From contig NC_089453.1 of assembly GCF_026210795.1 (NCBI RefSeq), forward strand, positions 1,986,501 through 2,050,500: a stretch of DNA of 64,000 nucleotides, in the 5' to 3' direction. The notes under the pieces are model-generated. The model did not search any database, was not told where the DNA came from, and saw nothing but the letters and a program-made list of their open reading frames with translations. A program made the translations under genes and the position numbers. Shown here piece after piece: positions 36,819-61,750 of this stretch (the stretch's first letter is position 1; each line of letters opens with the position of its first letter). The stretch is from Rhizophagus irregularis. Lineage: Eukaryota; Glomeromycota; Glomeromycetes; Glomerales; Glomeraceae.

Positions 36819-37129
36819 TTTATGAAATAACTATTTTATCCGGAATTTATTAAAACAAAGAAAAGATCAAATTAATAACTCGGATAATTTTTTTTACTAT
36901 TAGTAATTTGGTTAATCAAATTTAACTTTGAGCGTTATAGATTTATTGGAATAAAAAAAAATCGTGCACAAAAACTATAAAATGTATAGAATAGGTACAA
37001 TTTTGGTTTTTTGGAGGGTAACAATCATCTTTTGACTTGTTCAAAAATAAAATGTTCAGAAAGTTAAATAATAAATATAATTATTTATTTTTATTTACTA
37101 TTTATAACAGTATATTAAGTATGTTACAT
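36819..37129. other. Convergent 3' intergenic spacer
   Basis: 311 bp between the ends of two convergent genes. AT-rich, with AATAAA-like words on both strands, suitable for overlapping polyadenylation regions. Nothing else was seen. Confidence 0.4.
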
Positions 37130-38227: not shown

Positions 38228-38402
38228 TCTATTCTAAAAGTTATTTATTTATTATTTTTTTGCAAATCCCCTTTTATATAGACACGATTTTGGATCTGGT
38301 TTATCTTTTTTTTTGCAAGATCTTGTGTAACAGAAATTACAAGCCACCTAAAAATATATAAACATCATAAAACTCATGCGGATATGAATTAATTTCAATA
38401 TA
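38228..38402. promoter_or_regulatory. Bidirectional promoter of two mitoribosomal protein genes
   Basis: Only 175 bp separate the start codons of uS7m (-) and mL58 (+). Both products go to the mitochondrial ribosome, so this short region probably coordinates them. I can name no specific factor site. Confidence 0.6.
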
Positions 38403-38879
38403 ATGTCATTTTTGATTAAAAAAATTCCTTCCGCATTATCATTAAATCGAATATTATTTACTCGTACTTATACAGCCAAAAAACCCATAAATACTAGTAA
38501 ATCATCAGCACCAATTTACGAAAAAAAAGAATTAGAAGATGGTAGTATATTCATATCAAGAGTACCATTAAAACCTCAAAATCAATCATTTGAAGAATTA
38601 CCACCACCATTAAAACCGATTAAAAAAAAATCATATCATTTAACTCAAGAACAAATAAATGAGATAAAACAATTACGTGAAAAAGATCCTATTAAATGGA
38701 CTAGAAAAAAATTAGCGGAAAAATTTGAATGTAGTCAATTTTATATAGGTATCATCGCTCCCGTATCTGAAGAAAGAAGAAATGAATTAGAAGAAGAATA
38801 CAATCAAAAAATTGAAGAAATGGGATGGAAAAAGAGATTTATTAGAAATGAGAGATCTAGAAGACGGGATTTATGGTAA
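38403..38879 (+). CDS. Mitochondrial large-subunit ribosomal protein mL58 (MRP-L20 family)
   Basis: Single-exon gene of 158 codons. The N-terminus (IKKIPSALSLNRILFTRTYTAKK) is a typical basic presequence. The conserved core TQEQINEIKQLREKDPIKWT followed by RKKLAEKFECSQFYIGII matches the fungal MRP-L20/mL58 family, a fungus-type protein of the mitochondrial large ribosomal subunit with a helix-turn-helix-like core. The C-terminus is basic (RNERSRRRDLW). It is divergent from uS7m. Confidence 0.85.
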   Translation: MSFLIKKIPSALSLNRILFTRTYTAKKPINTSKSSAPIYEKKELEDGSIFISRVPLKPQNQSFEELPPPLKPIKKKSYHLTQEQINEIKQLREKDPIKWTRKKLAEKFECSQFYIGIIAPVSEERRNELEEEYNQKIEEMGWKKRFIRNERSRRRDLW

Positions 38880-39114
38880 AATGGTGAAAATATTATTGAT
38901 AATAAAAGGGACATTTATAATTTTCTGTTGATGTCACGTTTATAATTTTTTCTGTTGATGTCACGTTTATAATTTGTTCTGTTATCACTTTTATGTTTTT
39001 TATTATTATATTAAATAAATATCATAATTTAAATAAACAGATACATAATAATTAGGCATAATTTTGAATAATTTAAATAACTTGGATAAACAAACAAATA
39101 AACTATTTAATAAA

Positions 39115-41282
39115 TCATATCATTTCATCAATTTCTTCTCTAGTTAAATTAGAAATTTTTAATTTACTCCTATAATCATCCCAATTTAAATAAGCTCCAA
39201 TTATTCTTCTATGACCAGTAAATCCAGCTCTACCATGTAATACTCTCCAATTATTAAAAATTAATGCTCTACCAGGTTCTAATTTTACCCAATACTCATT
39301 TTCTTTATCAATTAAAATATTATTCCATTTTCTTAATGCATCATAAAATGCTTCAACTTCATTCGATGATAAATGACTTAACGTTGATCTGTCATCATTA
39401 TTATACCGAATTTGATAAATTTCATTTGTTAAAGGATTATAATTTAATATAGGATAAGCATTCGGTGTCGGTTCAATTAATGTATTAGGATCACCTGCTG
39501 AATGTGCAGGAATACGAATTGTGGATAATATTTTATGTGCTTCAGGAAATGTCATTTTTAATCTACGAGCCGCCCAAAATCCGTCAACTAATAATGACGA
39601 TCCTCCCGTACCATTGAACTCAATTAAATGAAACATTTGTAACCTATTTCAAAGAGTTGAGAAAATTTAAAATAATGTTATTTTTTTAAATTTTAAATTT
39701 AAATTTACTAAAAAAGAAAATTTTAACATACCCAGATGGATCAGTGAAATAGGTATTATCGGTATGAGCTTTCAATGCTAATGATGTATATGCAGTATCT
39801 CCATGTTCTAAATTTGATGTAAAGTCCCAAAATCTACCTAATTAAATAAGACAAAACTTAATATTTTTTAGAAAAGAGGAAATTAATATATCTCACTTGA
39901 AATAATTTTACCATAATGAGTTTCTCTTATGAAACAAATTCTTTTAGCTAATTCTTCTGTCTCTTCAACTTTAGGTGGCACTCCATCAACAAAACAAAAT
40001 CCAAATTGATCCTAATAAGGAAAAAAAAGAAATTTACATTGGATAAATAAATAAATAAAGTAAGGTGATGCAGCTAAATGGATAAATAGAATAGTACTTA
40101 CAATGTTCAATAACCAATTTGATAACCCTTCTTCAGATTTCATTACCTACGAATAAAATAGAAACACATAAATAAATTAATTATTTTGGCTATAATTTTA
40201 AAATAGTTTGTTCCCATGTATGACTTACTGACTTACATCTTCGTACTTAACAGTCGGCGGATACTCTTTAATCCTCGCATCCCATAATATTTTCCTATTA
40301 AATAATAGGAAATAAAACAAATAAATAAATAAATTTATTTGTTAAAAAATTTTTTTTTTACACGTAAAAAAAAAATGACAATTACTTTTGTAAGAATGGT
40401 TGAAAATCAACAAATTGTGGATCATAAGAATGCCTTCTCAACCAAGTCCACCTAAAAAAACTAGTATGTCCATCACTCCCTAATCAAAAAATTTAATTCA
40501 GATTCGAAGAATAAATACTAAACTAAGTACAAATAAATGATAAAATATACATTTAATTTTTATTCCATTTGATTCTGGTAACGCAGATTCTGATTCAAGA
40601 TCTTCCGGTATCTTAAATGTATCAACAAGTCTTTGTTTGGTTACTTTATGAAAACATTCATCACATTTACAGTGATCTCTTAACCAAATATTATGACTAT
40701 AAATAAAAATAAAAAAAAAGTGTTAAAATAGAAAAATTTAAAATAGAAAGATTTTAAAATAAAAATTTTTAATTAATCACAGGAAAAAAAAAATTTTGCG
40801 CTGTTTCAGCGATCATCATGTTATTAATAAAGTTTTTTTTAAAAAAAAAAAAAATTTACAATTTACTTGTCTGACCATCTGGCCAATCTATGAATACTTT
40901 TGTAAGTGTCGTCGATACCGCTATAGGATTGGATTGCGGAATCGTCATTTCAAAGTCTGGTGACTTTAGTATATATATAAATCACAAATAAAACAATTAT
41001 AATTATTATTAAAATCAAAAATAATCCATCAATTCATTTTTTATTGAAGATTCATTTAAATACCTCCGTTAAATTTCTTTTACAAATATTATTAATCAAT
41101 AATTCACGTTTTTCAATAATATTCGTTCGAATTCTTGAAAGTACTCCATTATTATTTCGACTTAAATAACTAATACTACGAAATGAATTATTCTTTATTA
41201 TTAAATTTTTACTTAATAAATTATTACTAGAATTAAAGCTAATTTTGATATTAGCATATACTCGAGGAATTGAACGAAACAT
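39115..41282 (-). CDS. Trimethyllysine / gamma-butyrobetaine dioxygenase family, mitochondrial, nine exons
   Basis: Exons 41282-41064, 40963-40860, 40696-40551, 40479-40386, 40294-40237, 40146-40102, 40011-39912, 39837-39732 and 39643-39115 join in frame to 466 residues. The N-terminus is a basic, Ser/Asn-rich presequence. A DUF971-like domain carries the zinc cysteines C117, C119 and C122 (WLRDHCKCDECFHK). The TauD-type 2-oxoglutarate/Fe(II) domain has H280 and D282 (HTDNTYF) and distal H427 (NWRVLHGRAGFTG), with R429 nearby for 2-oxoglutarate. The family catalyses the first (trimethyllysine hydroxylation) or last (gamma-butyrobetaine hydroxylation) step of carnitine synthesis. The presequence favours trimethyllysine dioxygenase, but the two are hard to separate by eye. 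All metal ligands are present, so it should be active. Confidence 0.88.
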
Positions 41283-43213: not shown

Positions 43214-43769
43214 GTACTGCGGTATATCTTTCGGCAAGAATTTTTCCGATATCGCACTGCGCATTCCAGGTGCTCGATTCACATGGCCCGTTCATGCTAA
43301 TGGTGAGCAAAAGTTTGTATAAACGGTATGATATAGTTTTCTTTCATAAGATATGCAGTGCATAAATAGCTTTTAGAATACCATGACTTCATGGTATAAT
43401 ATTCTTTGTCAAAATATTCTCACTATTATTACCCTCTCTCTGTTTAAGATGCGAGTAGTTGGTTAAATTAGAAAAAAAAAATGATTTACAAATAAAATTT
43501 CCGAGCTGAAAAAAGAAATAAAACTTAGGGACACCAATTTTCAAATTATGTTGTTATCGCAAATTTCCCTAATCACGTAAAAATACAAAAATTGAAAATT
43601 GCCATTATTAAACCTCAACAGAAACTTAGTGACAGGTGAGACGTCAGTGGTATTCTTAATGCTGATTCTTGAGTTTCTGATGCATTAACCAAGAACGAAC
43701 CGTAGTGTTAGTTTTGAATATCCACGTCTCAGAGTTTCAAAGCTACCTACCGTTCGTAGAAAAATTTGT
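43214..43769. other. Intergenic, no gene seen
   Basis: AT-rich. 43378-43397 is a small perfect hairpin (ATACCATGA and TCATGGTAT). Nothing else can be supported. Confidence 0.4.
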
Positions 43770-44140
43770 ATTTTTTTATCAAAGCTGGTATGATGAGTAA
43801 TATATTTTTGAGCGATTGAAGCCATTCTTTCGAAATTAAGAATTAATAAACCATTTATATACTGTACACTTTTTTAAGTAACAAAAAAAAAATAAATTTT
43901 TTCTTAGTAAAGAAGGATAAAATGATTTAAAATTAATCATCTTGAGGCTGAAGTTGCGAATTCGCAATGAAATAAAGAGAAATAAAGAGAGTAGATTTCC
44001 CTGAATTTACAAGCCCAATAAATTAACATTATTGCTTAAAACACTAGATAAATAATTTTTGAAAGAGAACGTAACGATAAGCCATCGAACAACTGTAAAG
44101 GTTTCCTTGTTTTATATACTTATTTATTGACATTAATTTT
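43770..44140 (-). pseudogene. Decayed third copy of the VLIG-type GTPase gene (G-domain fragment)
   Basis: 43770-43855 matches the start of exon 7 of the two intact genes (AGTAATATATTTTTGAG and CAAGAATTAA-like words), and 43940-44140 matches exon 6, which holds the P-loop. An intron-like gap between them corresponds to intron 6. Retention of the intron shows a genomic duplicate, not a retrocopy. Indels and stops rule out function. Confidence 0.8.
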
Positions 44141-44465: not shown

Positions 44466-47400
44466 TTATTCTGGAATGAGACCTCCGTATCTGAATTCCC
44501 ATGATGGATCAGTATTATCAACCATGTCATGTTTTTTACAGAGTTCATCTTTAAGTTTATACCAGATCGCACGCATTTTTGTTATATGTTCATCAGAAGG
44601 TTCTGATCGGGGAAAAGGAAGCCATGATGGATGATATTTAGACAAAAATTCAGAGAGTGGTAATAAATTTTGATCCTTTTTACTATATCCCCATAATCTC
44701 TCGTCATGAGCTTTATCCTCGGTACATACAATTAAAGATGGATACTTTGTTTCTCTGTTCCGACAACCATTAAAAGCTGGAAGCAAATGTTTAGTTACTT
44801 GATGTTGAGTATGATCATCATCAGGTAGCTCACATTTAGAAGAGCATAGTGGACATCTTGCTGAACAACCAATTTGATTATAATAGCTTATTTTTGTTTC
44901 TAAATACGTATTCATTCTTTTCTTCGATTCATTTCTTTCTGTATCAGTCCATATATTTTGTATACTATCTCCTTCTGTTATGGACTTACAAAGTAATTCA
45001 CAAAAATAAACAGGTTTTTCAATGGTAATACTTCCAAGTAGTTTATCTACATCCTTTAAAATTTCGGAAAAATCATACTCCGGTGGTGTCATATTCATAT
45101 TAATATTATGCTTTCGCTGCATAGATGTTCTTAATAAATTATATTCTTTAGAAGAAATTGACTTTCCAGATAAATAAAGAAGAAAGCTTGATAATTGCAG
45201 TTGTTCATATATTTGCTCTGGATCGAATAATGCACTCCATTCAGAAACAGCCTTTAATAGGTTTTCCTTTGTATTTTTGTAATATTCATCAATTTCACGT
45301 AATATAGAATTCGTCAAACTTACTTTATATACTGCATAATCAGAATTAAAAAGGGTTGTCATATATTCTATCGGATCTTTAAGATATTCTCGAATTGCAT
45401 TAATGTTCAATGCATCAAAACTTTGTTTATACGCATAATTGGTTGCTGTATATGTGTCTGTCCAACTTTCTCTCAAATAGATTTGAAGTTTTCGATCAAC
45501 TGTTTTTTCTATTACTGACATTTGCTGCTTAAAGGCTATTAAAATATATTTAAGCATTTCTTTGGAAAGATTTTCATTGGAAAAATCTGTTAAAATTTTT
45601 TGAAAAGATAATAGTAAATCCTTTTTCAGGTTATCCGATTTTTCTTTTTGTTGTTTTTCCCATTTAATAGTATTATTCCTTAATGTTTTATATATTTGTG
45701 ATCTAAAATATTTCTGTAAATAAAAAATATTCGAATATTAGATTTGTAAGCATGCAAAATATCAAGAAACTATTGTTTTAAATGTTACAAATATATAAAA
45801 TTCTATCATTTAATTACCTCAATAAAATCAAAGTCAGTCTTAAATTCCATATTACTAGTTTGTTGTGTAAAGTCAAATAAACAGTTACATAACGTTTCAA
45901 ACCATTTGATCGCTTGTCCGTATTCAATATGTAAAGATGTTTTATGTTTTAAGTCAAAAGTAATTCCATTAATTGTTCGCGTCAATTTGTCATAAATATC
46001 TTTAGCTATCTTTTTTTTCGAATTTTTCATAAGAAAACCGAAGCTCATAATATTTGGTTTAACTTCAATTATACATTGAATTTGTTGTATATTAATATTA
46101 ATATTTTCTTCCAAGGTTGATGGTTTCTTTATGCTTGTCCAAAAATCTCTTTTAAACTTTTCTTTTTCTTTTTGTTTTGAATCTTGACGAACTGTTGAAC
46201 TAAATTCATTAACAGCATTATTAAAAGTTACTTGAACATGTTGTTTTAATTCTTCTGACTGATATACCATCTGACGATAGAATTCCTTTTTATCATCATC
46301 TACTTCTTTCCAAATATCTTCAAATATTTTTGTACATTCTGCTTCATTAATCTTTTTAAAGCCTAGTCCTCTAATTTTATTACCAACTTTTTCTATCGCA
46401 CATTTTGATAGCCAAGAATCTTTATATTCTCTTACTAACGACATCCATTGCGCGTCTTGTTCTCTTCTTTCTTCCGAAATCATATTATAAATAAGCCTTT
46501 TTCCCTCTTCGACAGTATTGGCATCAAATTGTTCCTGTACTAATTCAGAATAATTTCTTAAACTATTTCTTTTCCAATTGTCTGTTAACGAATCTAATTC
46601 CATTCTAAATTCTGTTTCAATCGGAGTCCATTTTGAGTAGTCTACTTGAATTTTCTTAACATAACAATTAATTGTATTTTTAGCACGAGAAGTGAATTCC
46701 GGAAGATTGTTTTCTTTAATAATATTAACAATATTACGCATTTGATACCATGCTTGAATCGCTTTGAAACTTTCAAAATGAAGGAAACTTCCATATGTAT
46801 TAATTTTACTCCATACTGTTTTCATATATGGAATAAATCCTAAAAAAATAAAATTATATAATTATTTGGTATTGTAGAAAAAAATATACACGCCAGACAA
46901 TTTACCTTGAACATTTGTGAAATGTTCCGACGCATTCTTATGCAGTAAAGCAGATTTTAGGAGTGATTGTCTTAAACTTGAAATTTTTGCGGGAAATACT
47001 TCCTATTTAAAGACTTAATCAATAATTTAAGAATACCGAGCAAGAATAGAAACAGAATATACTTACTGCTGGTAAATTAACATTTTCAGTTTCTCCGATA
47101 TTGGTAACACGAGGACGAAAATCATCTTGATAACAACAGAATGCATTTTCTAATAAGTGAACATCTTGCTGTTCGACAGACATAAAATCTTCTAATGAAT
47201 CTACACAGCCAGGAATCTGTTTAAACATTTTTTTTAGTCCATCAACAATATCCTTAAACGCTGGCTCTTGAGCTTCTATCGTATCAACCATATCACGAAG
47301 TACAAAATGTAATCTTGGTTTTGATTGTCTATGTCTAAGAGCGTCCAAGTGCCATGAAGATACTTCTAAAATATCACCAATATCTCTTGTTAGTCCTTTT

Positions 47401-50400
47401 GTATTAATAATTATAATTTGTGAACACATTAAAGCCAAGAGTGTTATCTTTTTATCAAAACTGGTACGGTGAGTAATATATTTTTGAGCAGTTGATGCCA
47501 TTCCTTCAGAATCAAGAATTAACAGATCAATCGTATTTCCATTGAAATTCGTGGTTCGATAACTCATATATACTCCTTTGGTACTAAAAAAAATTATTAA
47601 TTCTTAGTTACTAAAGAAAGGTAAAGCAAAATATTTACCATCTTGAAGCTGAAGTTGCAAATCCACAATGGAATAAATAATTTAAAAGAGTGGATTTTCC
47701 TGAACTTTCAAGTCCAATAACTGAAATTACTATTAATCTTCTTCCGACATTTGTCATCAAGTTACTCAAAACATTGGATAAAAACTTTGTTGGAAGAGAA
47801 CGTAATGATAAACCATCGAGTAATTGTAAAGGTTCTCCTTCAAGAATCCATGTTTTATACGCTTCTTGTAACTTTGGTTTATTGACATCATATCTAATTT
47901 AATAAAAATAAATTTATAAATTTGTATAAAAATTTTGATCGATTTTTAAATATAGATACTTACAACTGTTCTAATACTGATTTACGAGCATTATTCAATT
48001 CAGACAATATAATAAATTCACGCCAAAAGTCATGAATGGAAATATCATTTTCTTCGATAATCTGTTTGATTTTAGTTCGTTCTATATCGTTCTTTGAATT
48101 TTGTAAATCGCGTAGATATTTTTTAAAAAAATCATCAATTTGACAGGAAAAATCTCGTATTTTTTCTATATTATTTTCATTAATTAATTGTGCAAAATCA
48201 ATAAAAATTGTTAGTGGCTTTTCTGCCCCAAGTTCTAATTGTTCTTTTCGACATTTTTTAATCCTATTTAAAATTTCTCCTTCAGACATGAATTTTGAAT
48301 TCACTTGTGATTCTGTCGTAGATTTCTTATCATTTAATGCTTCAATCTCATGTTCTAAATGAGTCGCACGAAAAATATCTGATCTGCTATTAAATTTGAT
48401 AGTCTTCATTTTAGAAGCGAATGAAGATTCTTCAGTTACACTTTTCCAAATATTTAGAGTACTTCCATCTAATAATTTAAGAAATAGGGATGGATGAATA
48501 ATTTTTACTTCAAGTTTTGATAGTTGTTCCATTACATCATCTTTTCTCTTTTCAGCAAATAGATTTAAATCGTTAGAAATTTGCTCAATTTTAATACATT
48601 CAGAATTGAAGCGTGATTTCAGTAATTTTTTTAAAGTCTTTTTACGTTTACTGAAAGGATCATTATTTTTTGATTTACTCCAATATATCACAGATAATTT
48701 TGAGATGTATGATATATCATTGGATTCCGCTAAGATAGTATTAAAAAGTTGATTTAACTCATTAGATGGTGAATTTCCTTCAAAATCTTGATCATTTACG
48801 TGTAAAAACATGTAAAATGCAAACTGCGAGAAGCTATTAATTAGACTAAGAAAAGTTTGATGTGGGCTTTCTTCAAAGTATACTTCAGCTATAGCAACAG
48901 GTTTTCGTCCATAATTTTCCGAAGCGGAATGAAAAGAAATATCAATTGAACCAGCCGAAGTAACACTTAAACCATCTTCACGATGTTTACAAATAATTGG
49001 ATAAAGCTTTTTTGAGAATGGTGTAGTCAATTCGCTCGTAGTTAGATTGAATGATAATAATAAATGATATTTATCTCTAAGTATTAAGCTTTGAATTTCT
49101 TTTAATACTCGAAGACCTTTTTGATTAAAATCATTTTTGTTTGTAAATAATAATGGAATAGGAATATTTGCTCGAGTCAGTGAAAGAAGGATTTTTGAAA
49201 GTGCTTTTTTTGGTACTTTATCCAAGAAAGCTACAAGATAATCTCTCCCTTTGCAGTTAACTAATCGGTTTAATGCCTGTGAAGGGTCATTAAGCTCTTT
49301 AGAATCTGAAATTTGCCTAATGCAATCTTGAATACGTTGTAATGGAATGGTTCTATTAATTATATCGACGATATACGGAAATATATTTCTAAGAATTCCA
49401 TTTGTAGGATCACTTAAAGAAGGTTTCACTTTAACTTTAAATATTTCTTTAGTCAATTCATCCGTTACAAAGTTTGTAGCGTCATAACTGATTATTTCGT
49501 CTCCAAAAGTCATTTGGAAAAACTCCTCAAGTGATAAAGATTCAGATTGCGTTTCACCAACAGATGAGTCATCAGAATCTTCAGAACTTGTATCAGAGAT
49601 ATTTTCATTTTCAATTTTTTGATCCAGATTTTTATTAGAATCAAAATTTTGTAGAATTAAAGATTGACTTAATTCAACCCACGCATCTATAAATAAGATA
49701 TTAATTAATTATAAATCATTTTTTTTATTTAAAGAAAGAATATAAATAATGAAAAATTACCTTTATTTGACCCTACATTCTTTGTATATGGATTATGAGA
49801 AGATAAATGTGATTCAAAAATTATAAAATAATTTACCATACTTTGAATTCTATCTAGATTTTTAAAGAATATTTCAGGCGCAGAAATTATTACATTATTA
49901 ACGTATTCTTCTCTTAACCCATCGAGAACACTTGTGCTTTTATAATCAAAAGTATGATCAATCTCAAATAATCGTGGATATTTGCTCAGAGTAGACATAA
50001 AATCGGAGGAGTCGATAGACGATTGATCATCTGAATACTGTTTATTATAATTATCAATAATATTGTGAATAACTAAAAAAAAGAAAGAAAGAAAGAAAGA
50101 AAGAAATAGATAAACAAATTTGTTATAGACATATCAACGTTAATGAAAAAAATATGCCGACAGAATATATTTTAATAATTAGTATACCTTTTGAAAGAAT
50201 GTTATCCATGCTTTTTTGTTGAAATTGATTCACGAGTTCTTTTTGAAAGTTTAACATCCCATTGGAAAATTTAACGAGAATACTACTAGTTATTTCAAAT
50301 GATACTCCTTGTTCAACGGTAAATTGCTCAACTAATATCGTTGCTGTTGATATTGCAATTCCGAGATTCATACTGAAAAGTTTATCATTTCATACGAGAT

Positions 50401-51352
50401 ACAAAGTATTAATACACATTGCGTTACTACCAATGTTGATGATATAGTGACATAAATTAATTACCTTTTATTTTGCCAAGATTTACAATCAAATGCCGAT
50501 TCGCCAATCACACATACAAAATTTTCAAAATTTCCATTTTGGCCATTGTAGAATTCTTTAACTACTGATGAGTTATTTGAGTTCTTTGTGATTGAAATTA
50601 AGTCATAATTATTGATTTCAAAGAACCTAAAACCATCTCGTATAATATTCATAAACCAAGGATTATTCTTTATTGAATTTGAACTCGGGTCAAGTTCAAT
50701 ATTGTCGAATTCAGATTTCGATAAATTTATTTTAAGAACTCTTTGATTATTTTGTTGGAATTGTATCAAATATCTAGTTTGAAATAAAGATAAGATCTCT
50801 ATTTCACTACTCTGCAAATGATTATCGGTAAGATTAAAGTTAATTTCTAATTCATAATGATTGGAAATAACTTCTTTTTCGTCACAAAGGTTAACGTTAT
50901 AACCATCCGCGAGAACTAATAAATCAAATCTAAGATCTTGACTGGCTTGTACAGGATCAAACCTTGATGAAATGAAATAGAAATGTTAACGAGAGTTGAC
51001 TTTCGAGACTTAAATTACTGCGGGTTGATACATTTTATAATATATACCTTTCGTGAATAAGTTGGACAGTTTCCTTAGGAAGTTTTTTAATCAATTCCAA
51101 AAGTCGGTCTTCTAATTCATGCATAGAATATGTAGGAGATACATAATCACGGACACTTTGTGGAAGGTGTAAGATTTCTGTCTCATTGATTGAATAAAGC
51201 TGGTTCTTCGAATTACGAACTTTATAATCTTCATGATAAAGAAGAATTTTTCCTGAAATTTCTTTCGTAACAAAAATTTCGGCTAATGAAAGAGCGAAGA
51301 CAAGGCCAGAAAGACCTCCGCTACAGACGACAATAATTGGCTTTTGAAGCAT
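44466..51352 (-). CDS. FAD-monooxygenase-like / VLIG-type GTPase fusion protein, copy A
   Basis: Ten exons (51352-51048, 50962-50465, 50372-50188, 50072-49761, 49686-47964, 47893-47639, 47583-47067, 47002-46906, 46839-45818, 45713-44466) join in frame to 2053 residues. The N-terminus has a Rossmann glycine motif (VVCSGGLSGLVFALSLAE), then DLLVLADG and IGESAF...MNLGIAI, which follow the order of the three motifs of flavoprotein hydroxylases, but GES replaces the usual GDA. A helical middle leads to a GTPase domain: P-loop GLESSGKS at 1068-1075, DSEG (G3), VLRDMVD (RD-type G4), as in VLIG and guanylate-binding large GTPases. The C-terminus has a Cys/His cluster (RCPLCSSKCELPDDDHTQH). VLIG proteins are interferon-inducible in vertebrates; the role in fungi is unknown. 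The nearly identical exon plan in copy B supports the model. An (AAAG)n repeat sits in intron 3. Confidence 0.85.
50081..50107. repeat. AAAG microsatellite in intron 3 of GTPase copy A
   Basis: Six or more tandem GAAA units near the acceptor side of the intron between exons 3 and 4. It is absent from copy B, so it arose after the duplication. Confidence 0.8.
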
Positions 51353-51540
51353 TGAGCTCCTTCTAATTTATTGTAAGCTAGACGTTTATGTCGAATAAAA
51401 TAATAATAAGCCTAGTAAAAAAAATCAACAATAAGATTTATGAAGAATATAAGTTAATTTTTTGTAAAAGAATTAGAAAATGCAATCATTAATTTCATTT
51501 AAATTTTAGAGTTTTTCCGGAATTCTTATTTATTAAGATC

Positions 51541-51573
51541 CAGTGGTTTCACGAAAGTTTCACTGCATAATGA
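51541..51573 (-). promoter_or_regulatory. Conserved upstream block of GTPase copy A
   Basis: CAGTGGTTTCACGAAAGTTT followed by CACTGCATAATGA lies 189 bp upstream of the ATG. It is kept with only two differences at 61932-61964, 182 bp upstream of copy B, while the surrounding sequence has diverged more. Two GTTTCAC words ten bases apart suggest a regulatory site. Confidence 0.55.
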
Positions 51574-54500
51574 ACGAAAAAAAAAATCAAAAATAAATTT
51601 AGAAACTATATTGTCAATCTGTATAAATCTGGGATTAATTTTGCTGGTCATCTGGGCAAAAAAAATGGTATCAAATTATGGCTTCCCGGAGAATTATAAT
51701 ACAGTATATATCGATATAGTATAATTCATATTATATTAATTAATATTAAATTGAATTAATATTATACTTATAAATCAGTATGTTGCCAAGAAATAAACGT
51801 AATATACTAGTATATTTACTAGATTATGTTCACATTTCGGTAGCCGCAGCCAGTCATACAAGTCACGTGAAACGGAAGAAGATACGATCGACGATGTTCG
51901 GGCGAAGAAAGGAATTCAGTTACCTTTGGATAGAGCTTTATATCCCGAGTCAAGGCCATTACAGAAAAAAATATTTATATTATTTTCTGGGTTTGTGAAT
52001 TTTGTTTTGTTTTTTTTTAGACTAGTCTTCGTGTATGTGGTATTTCTGCTAGTAATTTTTTTTTTACAAAAAATGTATGTAGCATACCACGATTCTAAAT
52101 TTTAGCAGACATCCCCATTACTTATTATTTATGTTTTGAGGGTTTAGAAAGCTATAGCATAAAGGTGATGGCTATAGTTGTCACAAGAGCTGACTAAGGG
52201 ATTAAATGAGGGTCAGTAACTTCATCACAAAATTTTCAGGGTATTCAATATTGCACAAATAGTTAAATTTCTCGAAATTTATGCAATATAACTAACAATA
52301 TTATATGTATAATTCTTTGTACAAATTTATATAAAAATTAGCAAATTTTTTTATAATATATTGAATGGAAAATACATAATATATATTAAATATACAATTT
52401 ATGTGCATTTTCAGGGTGTGCAAATCAGTTTTTCATGCACAAAATATTGCATATTTTTTACATATAAAAAAAATTCCCGATGTTTGCTCGGAGAAGGAGA
52501 AGAATAACATTGGCTGGGGCGTGGCAGGAGATTTCATTTCTGATGTAATTGAATGTTAGTTGTTTTAAGAGATTGTATAAATACTCTTCCCTTATTTCAA
52601 TAAAAAGAAAAAAATAAAAATAAAGATTATGTTCACGTGATTCGTTAAATGATTGATAATAAAATCTTTCTAAAAGTTTAAAATTAGTAAATAAACATAT
52701 GTTTCACAATTGATAACAGAAGAGAATAGGTTTAAACTTGACGTCAAATTACATATGAAACTAATATAGGTGCTATTCCATCGTGGTATAAAGAATTAGA
52801 AAATACAGTATAATGATTAAAAATTAGGATAGTAGAGAAGTTATGAAATTAGTAGGAATATGAAGAGTTAGAAGGAATGAGGGAATGTACAGATCCCCTA
52901 TAAAAAATTTATTCCGTGTTTTTTTATTCCATGTTATTTCCGTAAATGTATCATATTCACGAAGTTTTACAAGTAATTACGGATAAAATTTTTTACAGAG
53001 ATCACAAAGGAGGGAAAGATTCGAAGTATTTAATGAAAAAAGCATAATAGGATTTAATTTTATTAAATAAAAGAATCTAGATAATCAAAGATATATGTAA
53101 AGAAGAAATTTACAGAAAGAAGTTACAAAAAAAATGGTTAAAAATGTTAGAAGAAAAAGATGAAGTTGTTTCTACACAGGTGTGATAAACGAGGGATGGA
53201 ATGAGTGAGAATAGATAAAAATGGTAAAGTGATAGACAAATTCAACGCAAAATACCTTATAGCATTGACTAAGGCACCCCCGGGTACTAAAAAATTGAAT
53301 CGTACCCAAGGGTATTAACATGGAAAAATCAGCCGAAATTAACCTAATTTTACCAGAATTAAAATTATCCTCTACATATCATACCCGGTATATTATAAGG
53401 GGGGTACGCCGAAATGCCCTTAGTCATGCTATACGGTAATGAATAGAATGAGAGTAAATGATTTAGAAATATAATGGTGTTAATAATATTTCCTAGTGAT
53501 TGCAAGATCAAGATCGTGCCAGATAACGAAAATATAGTATTAACGGCGAAAAAGGTATTAAATGAAAACGCTGAATTTGGTGTACGAGACGAGTATGGAA
53601 CGACTGGAACGTGCATAATATATACCTATGGTCATATGGATATTTAAGTTTATTAGTATAGAAAATAAGATTGAGATAAGTATTAGTAAGAAGCTTGGTA
53701 AAATATCATCATGTAATGGCTATTAGGCAAATTTACAAGAAGGACTTTGATGAATTTTAGTAATTATAAAGAGAACAACAATCTAGCTGACGAAACTCTA
53801 TTAGCAATTTAAAGTTATACTAGTCATATGAATATATGTAATTGAGCCGTCAGCAAATGAAATTATAATACAAATGAGGGAACTTATTAACATGATAATT
53901 AGAAATCATTCATTTGCATTTGTATGATTTATAATTGCCCATTATTAAAACATAATAAATATAATATTATCAGTTAGCACAATGTTTTAAATAAAGTCTC
54001 AGGGCGGATATCAAAAAATTTTTATTTGAAAATAATTTGATAAATACTTTTTTAAGCCAAAGTATAGTTCTTCAATAGCTTCTGGATTTTTTTTTGTGTT
54101 AAAAATTGAAGTACGTATGTTTACAATCAGTTTTAGTAATTCTTGCTTATATTGTATACTTTACAAATATTATTGGACAAAATATTTTAAGTTATATTGT
54201 CAAACTTATCAGTAATAAATTAATTTAATTATTTTAATTTATGATTTTAAATTTATTGAGCTTAAAAAAATGGGTATTCTTATGTCATCCTAGTCTTATT
54301 CAAAATAAATTTGACAACACCAAAGTTCTATTTTTTAAACACAAAAATTGGTAATACCGTATAGATTTTTTTAGCAATAATTATTTGGTATACTTAATAA
54401 TGGCCTTTATTATTATAAACATTCTTGTAACATTATAGTAGGTTCTTTAAAACACATTAAAATTTAGAATATTTGATATAAGATTTGATAACTTTAAAAT

Positions 54501-54896
54501 ATGTGATTGATTAATCAAAAAATTCATTTTTTATATTCAAACAACAGACTGAAAGTTAGATTTACAATTACTTTAATTATATAATTCAAATAGGATCTGC
54601 CGAACACGCACAGTTATCGTATAGTGATATTCCGAATTGTGAGATATTTTAGCATCGCTATCCAACAACTAATATTTTTTTTTTTTGGTAGTGCAATTTT
54701 TGAGTTTATTAATTATATAAAATACAGAAAGTTCTGTTACATGTATAATTAATTAGTTTAAAACATCCAACAACTAATATTTATTAAATATGTTTTTTAA
54801 TAATTGATTTCATTTAAATATATATAGTAGATGTACAGGTAGTATAATCATGTAAATAAAAACAAAATAACTAAGCAAAAAAAAAATTGTTTCCTG
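51574..54896. other. Spacer between the tandem GTPase genes
   Basis: 3.3 kb without a supported gene. It holds AT-rich sequence, short open frames with no motifs, and the MITE at 53258-53433. Confidence 0.5.
53258..53433. mobile_element. Small TIR element, 176 bp
   Basis: TATAGCATTGACTAAGG on the left is mirrored by CCCTTAGTCATGCTATA on the right, one base apart in length. Inner halves also oppose each other (CCCGGGTA and TACCCGG-like words). TA could be the target. A short open frame on the minus strand covers it but is not a gene. Confidence 0.6.
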
Positions 54897-57800
54897 TTAT
54901 TCTGGAATGAGATTTTCGTATCTTGGTCCCCATAATGGATTAGTATTATCAGTCATGTCATATTTTTCACAAAGTTCATCTTTAAGTTTCCACCAGATTG
55001 CACGCATTTTTGCTACATGTTCATCAGAAGGTTCTGAGCGAGGAAAAGGAAGCCATGACGGATGATACTTAGACAAAAATTTGGTGAGTGGTAAATAGAT
55101 TGAATCCTCATTACATCCCCATGTGCTAGTGTTATGAGCTTCATCTTCAGTACATATGATTAAAGTTGGAAACCTTGTTTTTACATCACAAACACCGGTA
55201 AAAGCTGGAAGTAAATGTTTAGATACTTGATGTTGGGTATGACCATCATCTGGTAACTCACACTTGGAAGAACAAAGTGGACATCTTGCTGAACAACCAA
55301 GTCGATCCCAATAAGACATTAAGGTATTTTTTGTTTCCAAATGAGCTTGTATTCTTTCTTTTTTTATAAATCTTTCTGTATTAATCCATGTAGTTTGCAT
55401 ATTTGTAAGACTTTCAATCAGGGATTTACAAAGTAAGTTACAAAAATCAACGGGATTTTCAATAATAAAACTTCCAAGCAAATTATTTGAATCTTTTAAA
55501 ATTTCAAAAAGATCATATTTTGGTACGGCTTCTCTTAATGAATTATATTCTTGAGAATTTGAATGCCCAGACAAATAATGAAAAAATTTTGATAATGACA
55601 ATTGATCATAATTTTCGAATAATTTATTCCATTCAGGTATACCATTTAGTATATTATCCTTTGTATTTATATAATATTCATCAATTTCACGTAGTACGGA
55701 TTCTATCAAAGCTTCGCTATATTTATTATATTCAGTATTAAAAAGGTTGGACATATATTCTGTTGGATTCTTAAGGTATTCTCGAATTGCATTAATATTG
55801 TATGCACCAAAACTTTGGCTATAAGCATGATTTGCTGCTGTATTTGTATCCATCCAACCTTTTTTTAAATATATCCGAAGCTTTTGATCTATTGTTTTTT
55901 CTTTCATGTCCAATTGTTGTCTAAATGCTATTAATATATATTTAAGAACTTCCTTAGAAAGACTTTCGTTGGAAAAATCTGTTAAAATCTTTTGAAATGA
56001 TGACAATAAATTTTTTTTCAGGCTATCCAATTTTTCTTTTTGTTTATTTTCCCATTTAATAGTATTATTCTTCAATGTCCTATATATTTGTGATCTTAAA
56101 TATTTCTGTAAATAAAAGTAGTAAATATTAGATTAATATATGTAAGCATATAAAAAGTAGCCATTATATTAACTATCATAATATATTAATAAAATAATTA
56201 CCTCGAAAAAATCAAGGTCAGATTTAAACTCAATTTTATTATTTAATGATTGTGCAAACTCAAATAAACAATCACATAATGTCACGAGCCATTTGATCGC
56301 TTGCCTATATTCAATATGTAGAGACAATTTTTGTTCTAAGTCATAAGTAATTCCGTTAATTGTTTGCTTCAATTTACTTTCGATTTCTTCTGCAATTTCT
56401 CTTTTGTTAACATTCTTTTTTACAGTAAAGAAATTAAAATGAGTATTTATTTTTATTATATTTTGAATTTGTTCTACGTCAATCCTAATATGTTTTTCTA
56501 AAGTTGATGGTTTCTTTATACTTGTCCAAAAATCTCTTTTAAATTTTTCTTTTTCTTTCTGTTTTGAACCTTGACGAACTGTTGAACCAAATTCATTAAC
56601 AGCATTAACAAAGGTTAATTGAACATGTTGCTCTAATACTTCTGGCTGTAATACCATTTGTCGATTAAATTCTATTTTATCATCTTCTACCTCTTTCCAA
56701 ATTTCTTCAAATATTTTTTTACATTCAGCTTCATCCCTTTTTAAATTAGTAGTATTTAATCCTTTGATTCTTTTACCAACTTTTTCTATAGCACAATCTG
56801 ATAACCAAGAATCTTTATATTCTTGAATTAATAACATCCATTGACTTTCTTGTTCTCTTCTTTCTTCTGTAATCATATTATAAATTAATCTTTTACCTTC
56901 TTCTACAGTATTTATATCAAATTGTTCTTGTACTAATTCTGAATAATTCTTTAAATTATCTTTTGTCCATTTATCTGTAAGCAATTCCAATTCTTTTATA
57001 AATTCTTTTTCAATTTGATCCCATTTTGAATAATCTAATTTAATTTTTGTAACATAATCATTGATTATAATCTTAGAATTTGTAGTAAATTCCGGTAATT
57101 TATTTTCTTTAATCTCGCTAACAATATTACGCATTTGATGCCATGCTTGTATCGCTTTAAAGTTTTCAAAGTGAAGAAAACTTCCGTATGTATTAATTTT
57201 ACTCCATACGGTTTTCATATATGGAATAAATCCTAAAATGATTTAATTACATAAAATAGTTGTAAATAGAAATACAAATACGAATGCATATCAGATAATT
57301 TTATTACCTTGTACATTTGTGAATTGTTCTGATGTATTTTGCTGTAATAAAGCAGATTTTAAGAGTGATATTCGTAAACTTGAAATTTTTGCAGGAAATA
57401 CCTCCTATATTAAACGAAAGACATTATTGATTTGAATTTAAGTGATAATAAACCAAATTGTTGGTTAACCTAACACTCACGGCTGGCAAATTGACATTTT
57501 CGGTTTTACCAATATTGGCAACACGAGGACGAAAATCATCTTGATAACAGCAGAATGCGTTATCTAACAAATGAACGTCTTGTTGTTCAACTGACATGTA
57601 ATCTTCTAATGTGCCTACACAACCAGGAATCTGTTCAAACGTTTTTTTTAGTCCATCAACAATATCCTTAAATGCTGGTTCTTGAGCTTCTATCGTATCA
57701 ATCATATCACGAAGTACAAAATGTAATCTTGGTTTTGATTGTCTATGTCTAAGAGCGTCCAAATGCCATGAAGATACTTCCAAAATATCACCAATATCTC

Positions 57801-60800
57801 TTGTTAATCCTTTTGCATTAATTATTACAATTTGTGAACACATTAATGCTAATAGTGTTATCTTTTCATCAAAGCTAGTACGATGAGTAAAATATTTTTG
57901 AGCAGTTGATGCCATTCCTTCGGAATCAAGAATTAACAGATCAATCGTATTTCCATTAAAATTTGTGGTTCGATAACTCATATATACTCCTTTGGTGCTA
58001 AAAAAAAAATAATAATTAATAGTTAAAGAATTGCAAATAATTACTAAACGAAAAATTTACCATCTTGAAGCTGAAGTTGCAAATCCACAATGGAATAAAT
58101 AATTTAAAAGAGTGGATTTCCCTGAACTTTCAAGTCCAATAACAGAAATTATTATTAATCTTCTTCCGACATTTGTCATTAAGTTACTTAAAACATTGGA
58201 TAAAAACTTTGTTGGAAGAGAACGTAATGATAAACCATCGAGTAATTGTAAAGGTTCTCCTTCAAGAATCCATGTTTTATACGCTTCTTGTAACTTTCGT
58301 TTGTTGACATTATACCTAATTTAAGAAAAATAAATTTATAAGTTAGTATAAATTTTTTAATCGACCTTTAAATATCGATTCTTACAATTGTTCTAACACC
58401 GATTTATAATCATTATTCGATTCAGATAATATAATAAATTCACGCCAAAAGTCATGGATAGATATATCATTTTCTTCGACTATCTGATTGATTTCAGCTC
58501 GTTCTATGTCGTTATTTGAATTTTGTAATTCATGCAAATATTTTTTGAAAAAATCATCAATTTGACGGGAAAAATCTCTCATTTTTTCTATACTATTTTC
58601 ATTTATTAATTGTGCAAAATCAATAAAAATTGATAATTTTTCTTTTGCACCACCAAGTTCCAATTTTTCATTTCGGCATTGTTCTATTCTATTTAAAATT
58701 TCTCCTTCAGACATGAACTTTGAATTCTCTTGTGATTCTGCGGATCTCTTATCATTTAATGCTTCGATCTCATGTTCTAAATGAGTCGCACGAAAAATAT
58801 CTGATCTGCTATTAAATTTGATAGACTTCATTTTAAATGCAAATGAAGATTTTTCAGTTACATTTTTCCAAATATTTAAAGTACTTCCATCTAATAATTT
58901 AAGAACTAATGATGGATGGATAATTTTTGTTTCAAATTTTGTCAGTTTTCTCATTACGTCATCTTTTTTCTTTTCAGCAAATAGATTTAAATCGTTAGAA
59001 ATTTGCTCAATTTTAATACATTCAGAATTGAAGCGTGATTTCAGTAATTTTTTTAAAGTCTTTTTACGTTTACTGAAAGAATCATTATTTTTTTTTGATT
59101 TGCTCCAATATATTGCAGATATTTTTGAGATATATGGATCATTGGATCCTGCCAAGATAGTATTAAGGAGTTGATTTAATTCACTAGAAGGCGAGTTTCC
59201 TTCAAAATCTTGATCGTTTACGTGTAAAAACATGTAAAATGCAAATTGTGAAAAACTACTAATTAGACTGAGGAAAATCTGATGTGGATTTTCTTCAAAG
59301 TATATTTCAGCTATAGCAACAGGTTTTCGTCCATAATTTTCCGAAGCGGAATGAAAAGAAATATCAATTGAACCAGCCAAAGTAATACTAAAACCATCTT
59401 CACGGTGCTTGCAAATCTTTGGATATAGCATTTTTGTGAATGGTGTAGTCAATTCGCTCGTAGTTAGATTGAATGATAATAATAAATGATATTTATCTCT
59501 GAGTATTAAGCTTTGTATTTCTCTTAATACTCGAAGACCTTTTTGATTAAAATCATTCTTATTTGTAAATAATAATGGAATAGGAATATTTGCTCGAGTT
59601 AGAGAAAGAAGGATTTTTGAAAGTGCTTTATTAGGCATTTTATCTAGGAATGCTATAAGATAATCTCTCCCTTTGCAGTTAACTAATCGTTTTAATACCT
59701 GTGGAGGGTCATCAGGTTCTTTGGAATCTGAAATTTGTCTAATGCAATCTTGAATACGTCGTAATGGAGTGTTTCTATTGATTATATCAATAATATACGG
59801 AAATACATTTCTAAAAATTCCTTTTGTAGGATCATTTAAATAAGATTCCACTTTAGCTTTAAATATTTCTTTCGTCAATTCATCTACTACAAAATTTGTA
59901 GCGTCATAACTGATTACTTCGTCTCCAAAAGTCAATTGGAAAAATTCCTCAAGTGATAAAGATTCAGGTTGCGTTTCATTATCAGTTGAGTCATCAGAAT
60001 CCTCAGGACTGATACTATCATTTTCAATTTTTTGAATTTTTTGATCCGGGCTTTTATTAGGATCAAAATCTCGTAAAATTGAAGAATGATTCAATTCAAC
60101 ACATTCATCTATAACATAAAATATTAGTTAATCATAACAATAAATCTTTTTATTATTGTTAAAAGAAGGATAAGGAACGAATAATTACCTTTATTTGACT
60201 CAATATACTCAATATTTTTTGTATCCGAAATATGAGAAGATAAATAAGATTTAAAAATTATAAAATAATTCTCCATATTTTGAACCCTATCTAGTTTTTT
60301 AAAGAATATTTCAGGTGCTGAAATTTTGACATTATTAAAGTAATCTTTTTTTAATTCATTGAAAAAGCCTGTGCTCTTATAAGGATTCTTTTTTAAAGTA
60401 GGCATAAAATCAGAATCGATGGATAATTGGCCATCTGGATACTGTTGGTTATAGGTATCAACAATATTGTACATAACTTTATAAAAAATATAATGATGAC
60501 AATAATTAAATAAAATTTCGTTATAGGCATATCAACATTATTTGAAAAATATAGCGTCAAAATGTGCTCTGATAATTTACCTTTTAAAAGAATATTATCC
60601 ATGCTCCTTAGATGAAGTTGATTCACGAGTTCTATTTGAAAGTTTAACATACTATTGGAAAATTCATCAAGAATACTACGAGTTATTTTAAATGATATTT
60701 CTTGATCAATGGCGAGTTGCTCAGCTAATATCGTTGCTGTTGATATTGCAATTCCGAAGTTCATACTGGAAGATTTTATCATGTAATACCATATGATAAG

Positions 60801-61750
60801 AGATATATTAATACACCGCATTACCGTCGATGTTGATAATAAAAATTAATTACCTTTTATTTTGCCAAGTTTTACAATTAAATGCCGATTCACCAATCAC
60901 ACACACAAAATTTTCAAAATTTTCATATTGGGCATGTTGATAGCTTTTATAAAATTCTTTAGTTGTTAACGAGCTATTTAAGCTCTTTGAGATTGAAACC
61001 AAGTCATAATTATTGATTCCAAAGAATCTAAAACCGTCTTGTATAATATTAGTAAACCAAGGATTATTTATTGAATTCGAACTGTGGTCAAGTTCAATAT
61101 TATCAAACTCAGATTCCATTAAATCAATTCTAAGAAAATTTTGATTATTTTGTTGGAATTGCATCAAATATCTTGTTTGATATAAAGGTAAAATTTCTAT
61201 TTCACTATTTTGCAAATGATTTTCGGTAAGATTGAAGTTAATTTCTAATTCATAATTATTGGAAATAACTTCTTTTTCGAACTGCAAACTGTCACAAATA
61301 TTAACGTCATAACCATCTGCGAGAACTAATAAATCAAATCTAAGATCTTGACTGGTTTGTGCTGGGTCAAACCTGAGGAAATAAATGGAAAAGTTAACAG
61401 ACTTAAACTACTGCGGATTGTCACATTTTTAATATATCTGAATACCTTTCGTTAATAAGTTGTACAGTTTCCTCAGGAAGTTTTTTAATCAATTCCAAAA
61501 GTCGGTCTTCGAACTCATGTATAGAATATGTAGGGGATATATGATCACGAACATTTTGTGGAAGGCGTAAAATTTCAGTCTCATTGACCGAAAAAAACTG
61601 GTTCTTTGAATTACGAATATTATAATCTTCATGAAAAAGAATTATTTTTCCTGAAATTTTTTTCGTGACGAGAACTTCGGATAAAGAAAGAGCGAAGATA
61701 AGGCCAGAAGGACCTCCGCTACAGACGATAAAAATTGACTTTTGATGCAT
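54897..61750 (-). CDS. FAD-monooxygenase-like / VLIG-type GTPase fusion protein, copy B
   Basis: Ten exons (61750-61446, 61372-60854, 60765-60581, 60476-60189, 60108-58386, 58315-58061, 57997-57481, 57404-57308, 57232-56202, 56105-54897) join in frame to 2042 residues. Exons 1, 3, 5, 6, 7 and 8 have the same length as in copy A (305, 185, 1723, 255, 517, 97). FAD-type motifs: VCSGGPSGLIFALSLSE at about 9-25, DLLVLADG at 115-122, IGESAF at 261-266 and MNFGIAI at 276-282. G domain: GLESSGKS 1067-1074, DSEG 1116-1119, LRD 1187-1189. The C-terminal Cys/His cluster (C1915, C1918, C1922, H1929, H1932, H1937) resembles the CPLC...H pattern at the end of VLIG proteins. Both copies keep open frames throughout despite many substitutions, which implies selection. 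Large GTPases of this type usually self-assemble on GTP binding. Whether the flavin fold still binds FAD is doubtful because the Asp of the GD motif is replaced. Confidence 0.85.

What the first reader, a model, noticed from the sequence alone, without database searches (positions are those of the whole stretch)
44466..61750. Tandem genes fusing a degenerate flavoprotein-monooxygenase fold to a VLIG-type large GTPase
Both copies are long ten-exon genes (2053 and 2042 codons) in which every intron is GT...AG and phase-compatible, and six exons have identical lengths. The first three exons carry the glycine motif, DG motif and GD-like motif of class A flavin hydroxylases in the right order. Exons 6-7 carry a VLIG/GBP-type GTPase core, and the last exon a CPLC...H cluster. 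VLIG GTPases are known chiefly from vertebrate interferon responses. A flavin-fold sensor or regulator built onto one in a fungus would be a new architecture. I infer a self-assembling defence or membrane-remodelling GTPase controlled by a redox or ligand-binding domain; function is not shown.
Basis: partly seen in the sequence, partly recalled or inferred. Interest (0 to 1): 0.82.

Follow-up and report, generated by a model that had tools for sequence, protein, structure and literature searches.

The report
Pseudo-flavoenzyme domain fused to VLIG GTPase
In this fungus a small gene family joins a worn-down flavin-enzyme domain, whose closest relatives found here are bacterial signalling-type proteins, to a giant GTPase related to one that human cells use against intracellular bacteria, which suggests a fungal sensor-and-switch protein.

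Summary
Observation confirmed. Both genes (minus strand, 51352-44466 and 61750-54897) give open ten-exon models of 2053 and 2042 codons with GT-AG introns in matching phases; six exon lengths are equal. Two more copies lie on the same contig with the same exons and phases, all FAD-like+GTPase; one has an in-frame stop. Exons 1-4 are under purifying selection.

The GTPase is VLIG/URGCP type (Pfam URGCP_GTPase 3.5e-30). The genome holds four other such loci; the FAD-like query found nothing at them.

The FAD-like part matches no library directly. It is homologous to a flavoprotein domain of actinobacterial FHA proteins, whose predicted structure is p-hydroxybenzoate-hydroxylase-like (Z about 23). 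In all four copies the first glycine of GxGxxG and both glycines of the turn after the GD motif are replaced, so it is probably no longer an active flavoenzyme.

Most likely mechanism (inferred): a GTP-driven assembling GTPase controlled by a pseudo-flavoprotein sensor domain. Function, transcript and occurrence in other fungi are untested.

The parts
44466..51352 (-). Copy 1, ten exons: 51352-51048, 50962-50465, 50372-50188, 50072-49761, 49686-47964, 47893-47639, 47583-47067, 47002-46906, 46839-45818, 45713-44466; 2053 aa
   Evidence: paralogues
54897..61750 (-). Copy 2, ten exons: 61750-61446, 61372-60854, 60765-60581, 60476-60189, 60108-58386, 58315-58061, 57997-57481, 57404-57308, 57232-56202, 56105-54897; 2042 aa
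50188..51352 (-). Copy 1 exons 1-3: degenerate FAD_binding_3-like domain (residues 1-329)
   Evidence: homology to actinobacterial FHA flavoproteins; motif loss
60581..61750 (-). Copy 2 exons 1-3: degenerate FAD_binding_3-like domain (residues 1-336)
49761..50072 (-). Copy 1 exon 4: linker between FAD-like and GTPase parts, dN/dS below 1 in all six copy pairs
60189..60476 (-). Copy 2 exon 4: linker
47964..49686 (-). Copy 1 exon 5: no recognised family except its C-terminal end (from residue 900), where the URGCP_GTPase match begins
58386..60108 (-). Copy 2 exon 5: as above by alignment with copy 1
46906..47893 (-). Copy 1 exons 6-8: VLIG/URGCP GTPase core (P-loop residue 1068, DSEG about 1117, LRD about 1188)
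57308..58315 (-). Copy 2 exons 6-8: VLIG/URGCP GTPase core
44466..46839 (-). Copy 1 exons 9-10: long C-terminal region with CxxxCPLCxxxC...H cluster at residue 1921
54897..57232 (-). Copy 2 exons 9-10: long C-terminal region with Cys/His cluster at residue 1911

Best explanation
Anatomy: each gene encodes one protein in which an N-terminal pseudo-flavoprotein domain (p-hydroxybenzoate-hydroxylase superfamily; closest relatives found here, the flavoprotein domain of actinobacterial FHA proteins) is followed by a linker, a region of no known family, a VLIG/URGCP GTPase core and a long C-terminal part with a Cys/His cluster. Mechanism (inferred): the GTPase, with intact P-loop, DSEG and RD motifs, binds GTP and self-associates as GBP and GVIN GTPases do; the N-terminal domain, which has lost key cofactor contacts, no longer oxidises anything but binds a small molecule or a partner protein and holds or releases the GTPase. 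Shown by sequence: homology, gene structure, selection, motif state. Inferred: single transcript, loss of FAD binding, oligomerisation, sensing, and a cell-autonomous defence or self-recognition role.
For: Four copies of the same order on one contig; ten exons and phases equal in all four, while introns 3 and 4 vary in length (115/104/98/135 and 74/80/90/62); in copy 4 exon 3, intron 3 and exon 4 form one open frame, so FAD-like end and linker are joined even unspliced. dN/dS below 1 in all segments and pairs, linker exon 4 included. GTPase: URGCP_GTPase 105.5 bits, cut-off 55, copy 1. Flavoprotein homology: tblastn of copy 2 residues 1-336 in 72,556 plasmid records gives 13 records at E<=10; the seven best E-values (1e-2 to 3e-1) are all Streptomyces FHA proteins, 7 of the 8 such records in that collection. 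blastp against three of them at database size 1e8: best E 1.45e-7 for copy 2, 2.2e-4, 0.010 and 0.004 for copies 1, 3, 4; hhalign probability 96.4 over 268 columns. Against 48 bacterial domains hhalign scores 64.0 (115 columns, residues 7-122), versus at most 21.9 in 20 column shuffles and 15.3 reversed. Best bits of copies 1-4 against the FHA flavoproteins 48.1, 57.4, 42.0, 48.1, versus none or at most 26.6 against 20 ordinary actinobacterial FAD_binding_3 proteins and 27.7 in 200 shuffles of copy 2. In 16 actinobacterial genomes the fungal profile gave 4 rows at E<=10, all four in FHA flavoprotein genes, although six of those genomes hold at least 232 ordinary FAD_binding_3 places. The bacterial domain's model matches solved flavin hydroxylases: Foldseek E 9.8e-11, TM 0.51; Z 23.6, 3.6 A over 312 residues. 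Cofactor motif loss in 4 of 4 copies. Function by analogy: human GVIN1 forms a coat around cytosolic Burkholderia (preprint PMC11974893; passages seen).
Against: No direct library hit for the FAD-like part. The fungal profile alone is at its limit: it missed the FHA flavoprotein gene in 13 of the 16 genomes that have one, and in 396 genomes of the phylum 5 had a match at E<=0.1, one being the FHA gene (best, 0.012) and four short matches elsewhere; the three of these four that I looked at are unrelated genes by eye. The only fungal model that could be run, exon 2 alone, was unusable (pLDDT 46). Copy 3 has an in-frame stop in exon 9. Exons 9-10 evolve about as fast as the FAD-like part, so its speed is not special. 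No transcript, expression or biochemistry. Nothing speaks directly to ligand, assembly or defence; no PADLOC match for exons 5 and 7.
Confidence: 0.5

Rival explanations
1. Two neighbouring genes, a FAD-like protein (exons 1-3) and a GTPase (exons 4/5-10), wrongly joined by the splice model.
For: No transcript is available. Reading on into intron 3 meets a stop after 21, 62 and 20 codons in copies 1, 2 and 3, so a short FAD-like protein by intron retention is possible there.
Against: Same exons, phases and order in four copies; exon 4 has dN/dS 0.16-0.44 in all six pairs; in copy 4 exon 3, intron 3 and exon 4 are one open frame; each of the four FAD-like places found in the genome is followed by a GTPase.
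Confidence: 0.1
2. The N-terminal domain still binds FAD or another dinucleotide and is a redox sensor or enzyme feeding a signal to the GTPase.
For: The DG motif is kept in 4 of 4 copies, copy 4 keeps the GD aspartate, and a third glycine after the GD motif is kept in 3 of 4; the domain is under purifying selection.
Against: First glycine of GxGxxG replaced by S (copies 1-3) or N (copy 4), and both glycines of the PGRG turn after the GD motif replaced in 4 of 4.
Confidence: 0.2
3. The family is decaying: remnants of a duplicated gene with little function.
For: Copy 3 has an in-frame stop; a GTPase relic with stops lies next to copy 1 and an exon-5-like relic with many stops on another contig.
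Against: Three of four copies are open over more than 2000 codons, with dN/dS well below 1; GTPase core 0.07-0.22.
Confidence: 0.1
4. The flavoprotein resemblance is a generic Rossmann coincidence.
For: No HMMER hit to FAD_binding_3 or to solved structures; weak profile hits.
Against: Co-linear match to one specific bacterial family over 268 columns, far above shuffles and above ordinary FAD_binding_3 proteins.
Confidence: 0.05

Closest known systems
VLIG / GVIN / URGCP large GTPases (Pfam URGCP_GTPase PF25683)
   Same: GTPase core over the curated cut-off (copy 1); giant protein; Cys/His cluster near the C-terminus weakly shared with other VLIG-type proteins of this genome (score 26.6 against at most 18.3 in 20 shuffles).
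   Different: N-terminal FAD-like domain; ten exons, where two of the four other loci in this genome are single open frames of 1559 and 1532 codons; the URGCP domain (PF25496) of those two is not detected here.
Actinobacterial FHA-flavoprotein (FHA + FAD_binding_3-like), e.g. Streptomyces WP_329460619.1
   Same: Co-linear homologous FAD-like domain with shared signatures such as EDRLLEL...RFDP and IQEGLRLFGV / IQDGFRFFGI.
   Different: The bacterial form has an FHA domain (79 of the 80 loci examined) and intact cofactor motifs; the fungal form has no FHA match (copy 1), has lost cofactor glycines and is fused to a GTPase.
Class A flavin hydroxylases (PHBH, KMO, Tet(X), MICAL)
   Same: Fold of the bacterial relative's model.
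   Different: Fungal copies lack key cofactor residues and are not recognised by Pfam FAD_binding_3 (copies 1 and 4).
Guanylate-binding proteins and atlastin/Sey1/RHD3 GTPases
   Same: G domain of copy 2 matches Sey1 (4.7e-8) and GBP5 (3.5e-4) chains; RHD3_GTPase 3.7e-12 for copy 1; RD-type base motif (motif meaning recalled).
   Different: Size, other domains, and a better match to URGCP_GTPase.

Membership tests
VLIG/URGCP GTPase | URGCP-type GTPase core | tested here: met
   PF25683 105.5 bits, cut-off 55 (copy 1)
VLIG/URGCP GTPase | intact nucleotide motifs | tested here: met
   P-loop, DSEG and LRD in 4 of 4 copies
VLIG/URGCP GTPase | URGCP domain (PF25496) upstream of the core | tested here: inconclusive
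   not found by Pfam; no profile match of exons 4-5 to this genome's URGCP-bearing proteins, score 14.7 against up to 21.3 in shuffles; domain present in two other loci
VLIG/URGCP GTPase | GTP-driven assembly / antimicrobial coat | not testable with these tools
   needs biochemistry
Class A flavin hydroxylase (FAD_binding_3) | hydroxylase fold | tested here: inconclusive
   shown for the bacterial relative's model; fungal exon 2 model unusable
Class A flavin hydroxylase (FAD_binding_3) | GxGxxG, DG and GD motifs intact | tested here: not met
   first G and the PGRG-turn glycines lost in 4 of 4; DG kept in 4 of 4; GD aspartate kept only in copy 4
Class A flavin hydroxylase (FAD_binding_3) | over the Pfam cut-off | tested here: not met
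   no match up to E 10 for copies 1 and 4; copies 2 and 3 not scanned singly, consensus pieces gave none
Actinobacterial FHA-flavoprotein family | homologous FAD-like domain | tested here: met
Actinobacterial FHA-flavoprotein family | N-terminal FHA domain | tested here: not met
   fungal models start at the FAD-like domain; no FHA match in copy 1 up to E 1

The most novel reading that the evidence does not exclude
A bacterial-type FHA-linked flavoprotein domain entered the lineage of this fungus, lost its chemistry and became the ligand- or partner-sensing head of a VLIG GTPase; the local, mosaic four-copy cluster is then a fungal cell-autonomous immune or self-recognition locus, related by descent of its GTPase to vertebrate GVIN defence.
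Probability: 0.2. Interest if true: 0.85.

Novelty: new variant of a known kind. Interest (0 to 1): 0.6.

Why it matters
A 2025 preprint gives human GVIN1 a function and says none had been reported for GVIN proteins before (PMC11974893, passages seen). A fungal VLIG with a dedicated sensor-like head offers a tractable way to ask how these giant GTPases are controlled, and whether a fungus has cell-autonomous defence of this kind. The bacterial FHA-flavoprotein family, met on the way, looks like an unstudied signalling module: the one paper search aimed at it listed a single paper, on a glucose dehydrogenase, not opened.

Tried and rejected
Direct family searches of the FAD-like part: Pfam, solved structures, NCBIfam (a 17.6-bit match to fructose-bisphosphatase, cut-off 368, and a 0.032 match to ahcY, each in one member of 4, taken as chance). 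First genome-contig scan with the fungal alignment: 73 stretches, no relative. Viral contigs with the mixed alignment: 38 stretches, no relative. The genome's ordinary FAD_binding_3 genes as source: profile score 15.7, no better than shuffles; only the C-terminal open frame of 10 of them was compared. Bacterial domain against the whole fungal genome: nothing, without a positive control. URGCP domain in exons 4-5: not found. Fungal structure: exon 2 only, pLDDT 46, discarded. Kinase-like neighbour of the bacterial genes: a regular-expression count gave 37 of 80 loci, several loci being cut short; of 8 neighbouring frames from four non-Streptomyces loci none matched a kinase family, so no conserved operon is claimed. 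A first pattern count of FHA (49 of 80) was replaced by a profile search (79 of 80). PADLOC: no match for exons 5 and 7 of copy 2 or one bacterial protein; a weak mad8 match for another VLIG-type gene. Literature searches with VLIG, URGCP, GVIN1 or very large GTPase together with fungal or Rhizophagus terms listed no paper on such a fungal fusion (listings and abstract starts; open-licence papers only); one fungal NLR paper was searched for five terms and held none of GTPase, VLIG or FAD.

Full report
WHAT IS THERE. The window lies in a genome of 146.7 million bases in 32 contigs; that size and contig number, and the window's 27.5% G+C, fit Rhizophagus irregularis as I recall it, but the species was not tested. 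On the minus strand two tandem genes about 10.4 kb apart, start to start, can be read as ten exons each. Copy 1 runs 51352-44466 (2053 codons), copy 2 61750-54897 (2042 codons); all introns are GT...AG, phases agree, and exons 1, 3, 5, 6, 7 and 8 have equal lengths.

MORE COPIES. The FAD-like part finds four places in the whole genome, all on the contig and strand of the genes (12 rows). The linker plus exon 5 finds the same four and one relic with many stops on another contig (C12:1108381). The GTPase part finds the same four, four other VLIG-type loci, a relic beside copy 1 and one weak further place (C15:3344184, E 1e-4) (22 rows). Copy 3 lies at about C25:2101934-2095130 and copy 4 at about C25:2286707-2279411. 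A spliced alignment rebuilt both with the same nine introns in the same phases as copies 1 and 2. Copy 3 has one in-frame stop in exon 9 (C25:2096408); copy 4 is open. All four carry FAD-like part and GTPase part in the same order. In copy 4 exon 3, intron 3 and exon 4 form one open frame; in copies 1-3 reading into intron 3 stops after 20-62 codons.

SELECTION. dN/dS (Nei-Gojobori, six pairs of copies) is 0.28-0.49 for the FAD-like part, 0.16-0.44 for linking exon 4, 0.29-0.35 for exon 5, 0.07-0.22 for the GTPase core, 0.25-0.39 for exon 9 and 0.27-0.61 for exon 10. The FAD-like part is therefore coding and constrained, with dN 1.6 to 9.5 times that of the GTPase core, but exons 9-10 evolve about as fast. 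The copies look mosaic: copy 4 is closest to copy 1 in the GTPase (94% identical) but to copy 2 in exon 9 (87%), while its FAD-like part is distant from all three (58-61%); gene conversion is the likely reason (inference).

THE GTPASE. In copy 1 Pfam finds URGCP_GTPase, 3.5e-30, at residues 900-1204 and RHD3_GTPase, 3.7e-12, both over their cut-offs. By sequence the nearest solved chains are Sey1 (4.7e-8) and GBP5 (3.5e-4) (copy 2). The P-loop, DSEG and LRD are intact in 4 of 4 copies. The genome has eight URGCP_GTPase places: these four and four others (a lower bound by its own words for large families). Two of the others are single open frames of 1559 and 1532 codons and have a URGCP domain as well. 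The fusion's core aligns with them (hhalign 98.6% over 257 columns), the Cys/His cluster weakly (26.6 against at most 18.3 in 20 shuffles), exons 4-5 not at all. The FAD-like query found nothing at those four loci.

THE FAD-LIKE PART. Direct searches fail: no Pfam, PDB or meaningful NCBIfam match. A tblastn of copy 2 against 72,556 plasmid records gave 13 records at E<=10; the seven best E-values, 1e-2 to 3e-1, belong to the same kind of Streptomyces gene, annotated 'FHA domain-containing protein', in one record over query residues 6-293. These proteins join an FHA domain to a FAD_binding_3-like domain; of five scanned, one is over the FAD_binding_3 cut-off and four are below it. Homology of the fungal domain to this family was then tested. 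blastp at a database size of 1e8 gives 1.45e-7 for copy 2 and weaker best values for copies 1, 3 and 4 (2.2e-4, 0.010, 0.004); hhalign of 4 against 3 sequences gives 96.4% over 268 columns. Against 48 bacterial sequences hhalign scores 64.0 over 115 columns, at most 21.9 in 20 column shuffles and 15.3 reversed. All four copies reach 42-57 bits with the 80 bacterial frames (best of each), against none or at most 26.6 with 20 ordinary actinobacterial FAD_binding_3 proteins and at most 27.7 for 200 shuffles of copy 2 (24 such loci fetched, 4 dropped for want of a frame with both motifs). In 16 actinobacterial genomes, each holding an FHA flavoprotein gene, the fungal profile gave four rows at E<=10 in three genomes, all four in that gene, although six of these genomes hold at least 232 ordinary FAD_binding_3 places. 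Against: it missed the gene in 13 of 16, and in 396 genomes of the phylum 5 had a match at E<=0.1, one the FHA gene and four short ones elsewhere; the three of those four whose loci I looked at are unrelated by eye. The profile by itself is thus at its limit; the pairwise and profile-profile tests carry the claim.

FOLD. A model of the bacterial domain (L066, 48 sequences; pLDDT 70.9, pTM 0.72) matches styrene, kynurenine and p-hydroxybenzoate monooxygenases: Foldseek 9.8e-11 at best with TM 0.51; VIA-align Z 23.6, 3.6 A over 312 residues at best, with many PHBH entries at Z about 22-23.

STATE OF THE COFACTOR SITE. Of 155 columns invariant in 48 bacterial domains, 32-36 are kept in each fungal copy. 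The bacterial GGGPVGL is [S/N][G/E]G[P/L]SGL in the fungus, losing the first glycine of GxGxxG; the DG motif is kept in all; the GD motif is GESA in copies 1-3 and GDSA in copy 4; both glycines of the bacterial PGRG turn after it are replaced in all four, while the next glycine is kept in three of four. Which residues touch FAD is recalled from the known PHBH motifs, not computed here. The simplest reading is a pseudo-flavoprotein.

HOW IT MAY WORK. Human GVIN1 is reported to form an antimicrobial coat around cytosolic Burkholderia (preprint PMC11974893; passages seen). By analogy the fungal protein is likely a GTP-driven assembling GTPase. A degenerate enzyme domain at its head, under constraint, is best read as a sensor or docking module. 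This step is inference. Alternatives (two genes, active flavin sensor, decaying family, coincidence) are weighed in the rivals.

BACTERIAL FAMILY. The second genome-contig scan found 126 relatives of the bacterial query, of which the best 80 were returned, all from actinobacteria by their titles; 79 of 80 carry an FHA domain by profile; a kinase-like frame was seen in 37 of 80 loci by pattern. Other phyla could not be searched with a sensitive profile, so the source of the fungal domain, and the direction and fact of any transfer, are open.

NOVELTY. No paper on a fungal VLIG with a flavoprotein-like domain turned up in the searches listed under Tried and rejected; they cover open-licence papers only, and no annotated fungal database was available, so the architecture may be present, unremarked, in public annotation. 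I file it as a new variant of a known kind: a VLIG-type GTPase with a new N-terminal domain.

Noticed in passing
window 43691-44134 (-): Relic of a further VLIG-type GTPase core (36-37% identical to residues 1009-1188 of the fusion) with stop codons inside, just downstream of copy 1.
   Followed up: partly
L131 (G000 C12:1107400-1109600): Relic of the exon-5 region of the fusion, with many stops, on another contig; no other part of the gene was sought there.
   Followed up: partly
L016-L019, L020-L099: Actinobacterial protein family with an FHA domain joined to a divergent flavin-hydroxylase-like domain with intact cofactor motifs; in three annotated Streptomyces plasmids next to a protein kinase gene.
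   Followed up: partly
G000 C14:3104173, C14:3201676, C2:1820935, C1:5945348: Four other VLIG/URGCP-type loci in the same fungus, two of them single open frames of over 1500 codons.
   Followed up: partly
G000 C9:3432164-3453890 and elsewhere: Ordinary FAD_binding_3 genes, five matches within 22 kb of one contig (21 matches scored, a lower bound).
   Followed up: no
window copies 1 and 2 with C25:2095130-2101934 and C25:2279411-2286707: The four copies look mosaic: the nearest neighbour changes from segment to segment, as expected from gene conversion.
   Followed up: partly
window 36074-39648: Open frames that look like the end of a SANT-type protein, a mitochondrial ribosomal uS7-like protein and a carnitine-synthesis-type dioxygenase, by eye only.
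   Followed up: no
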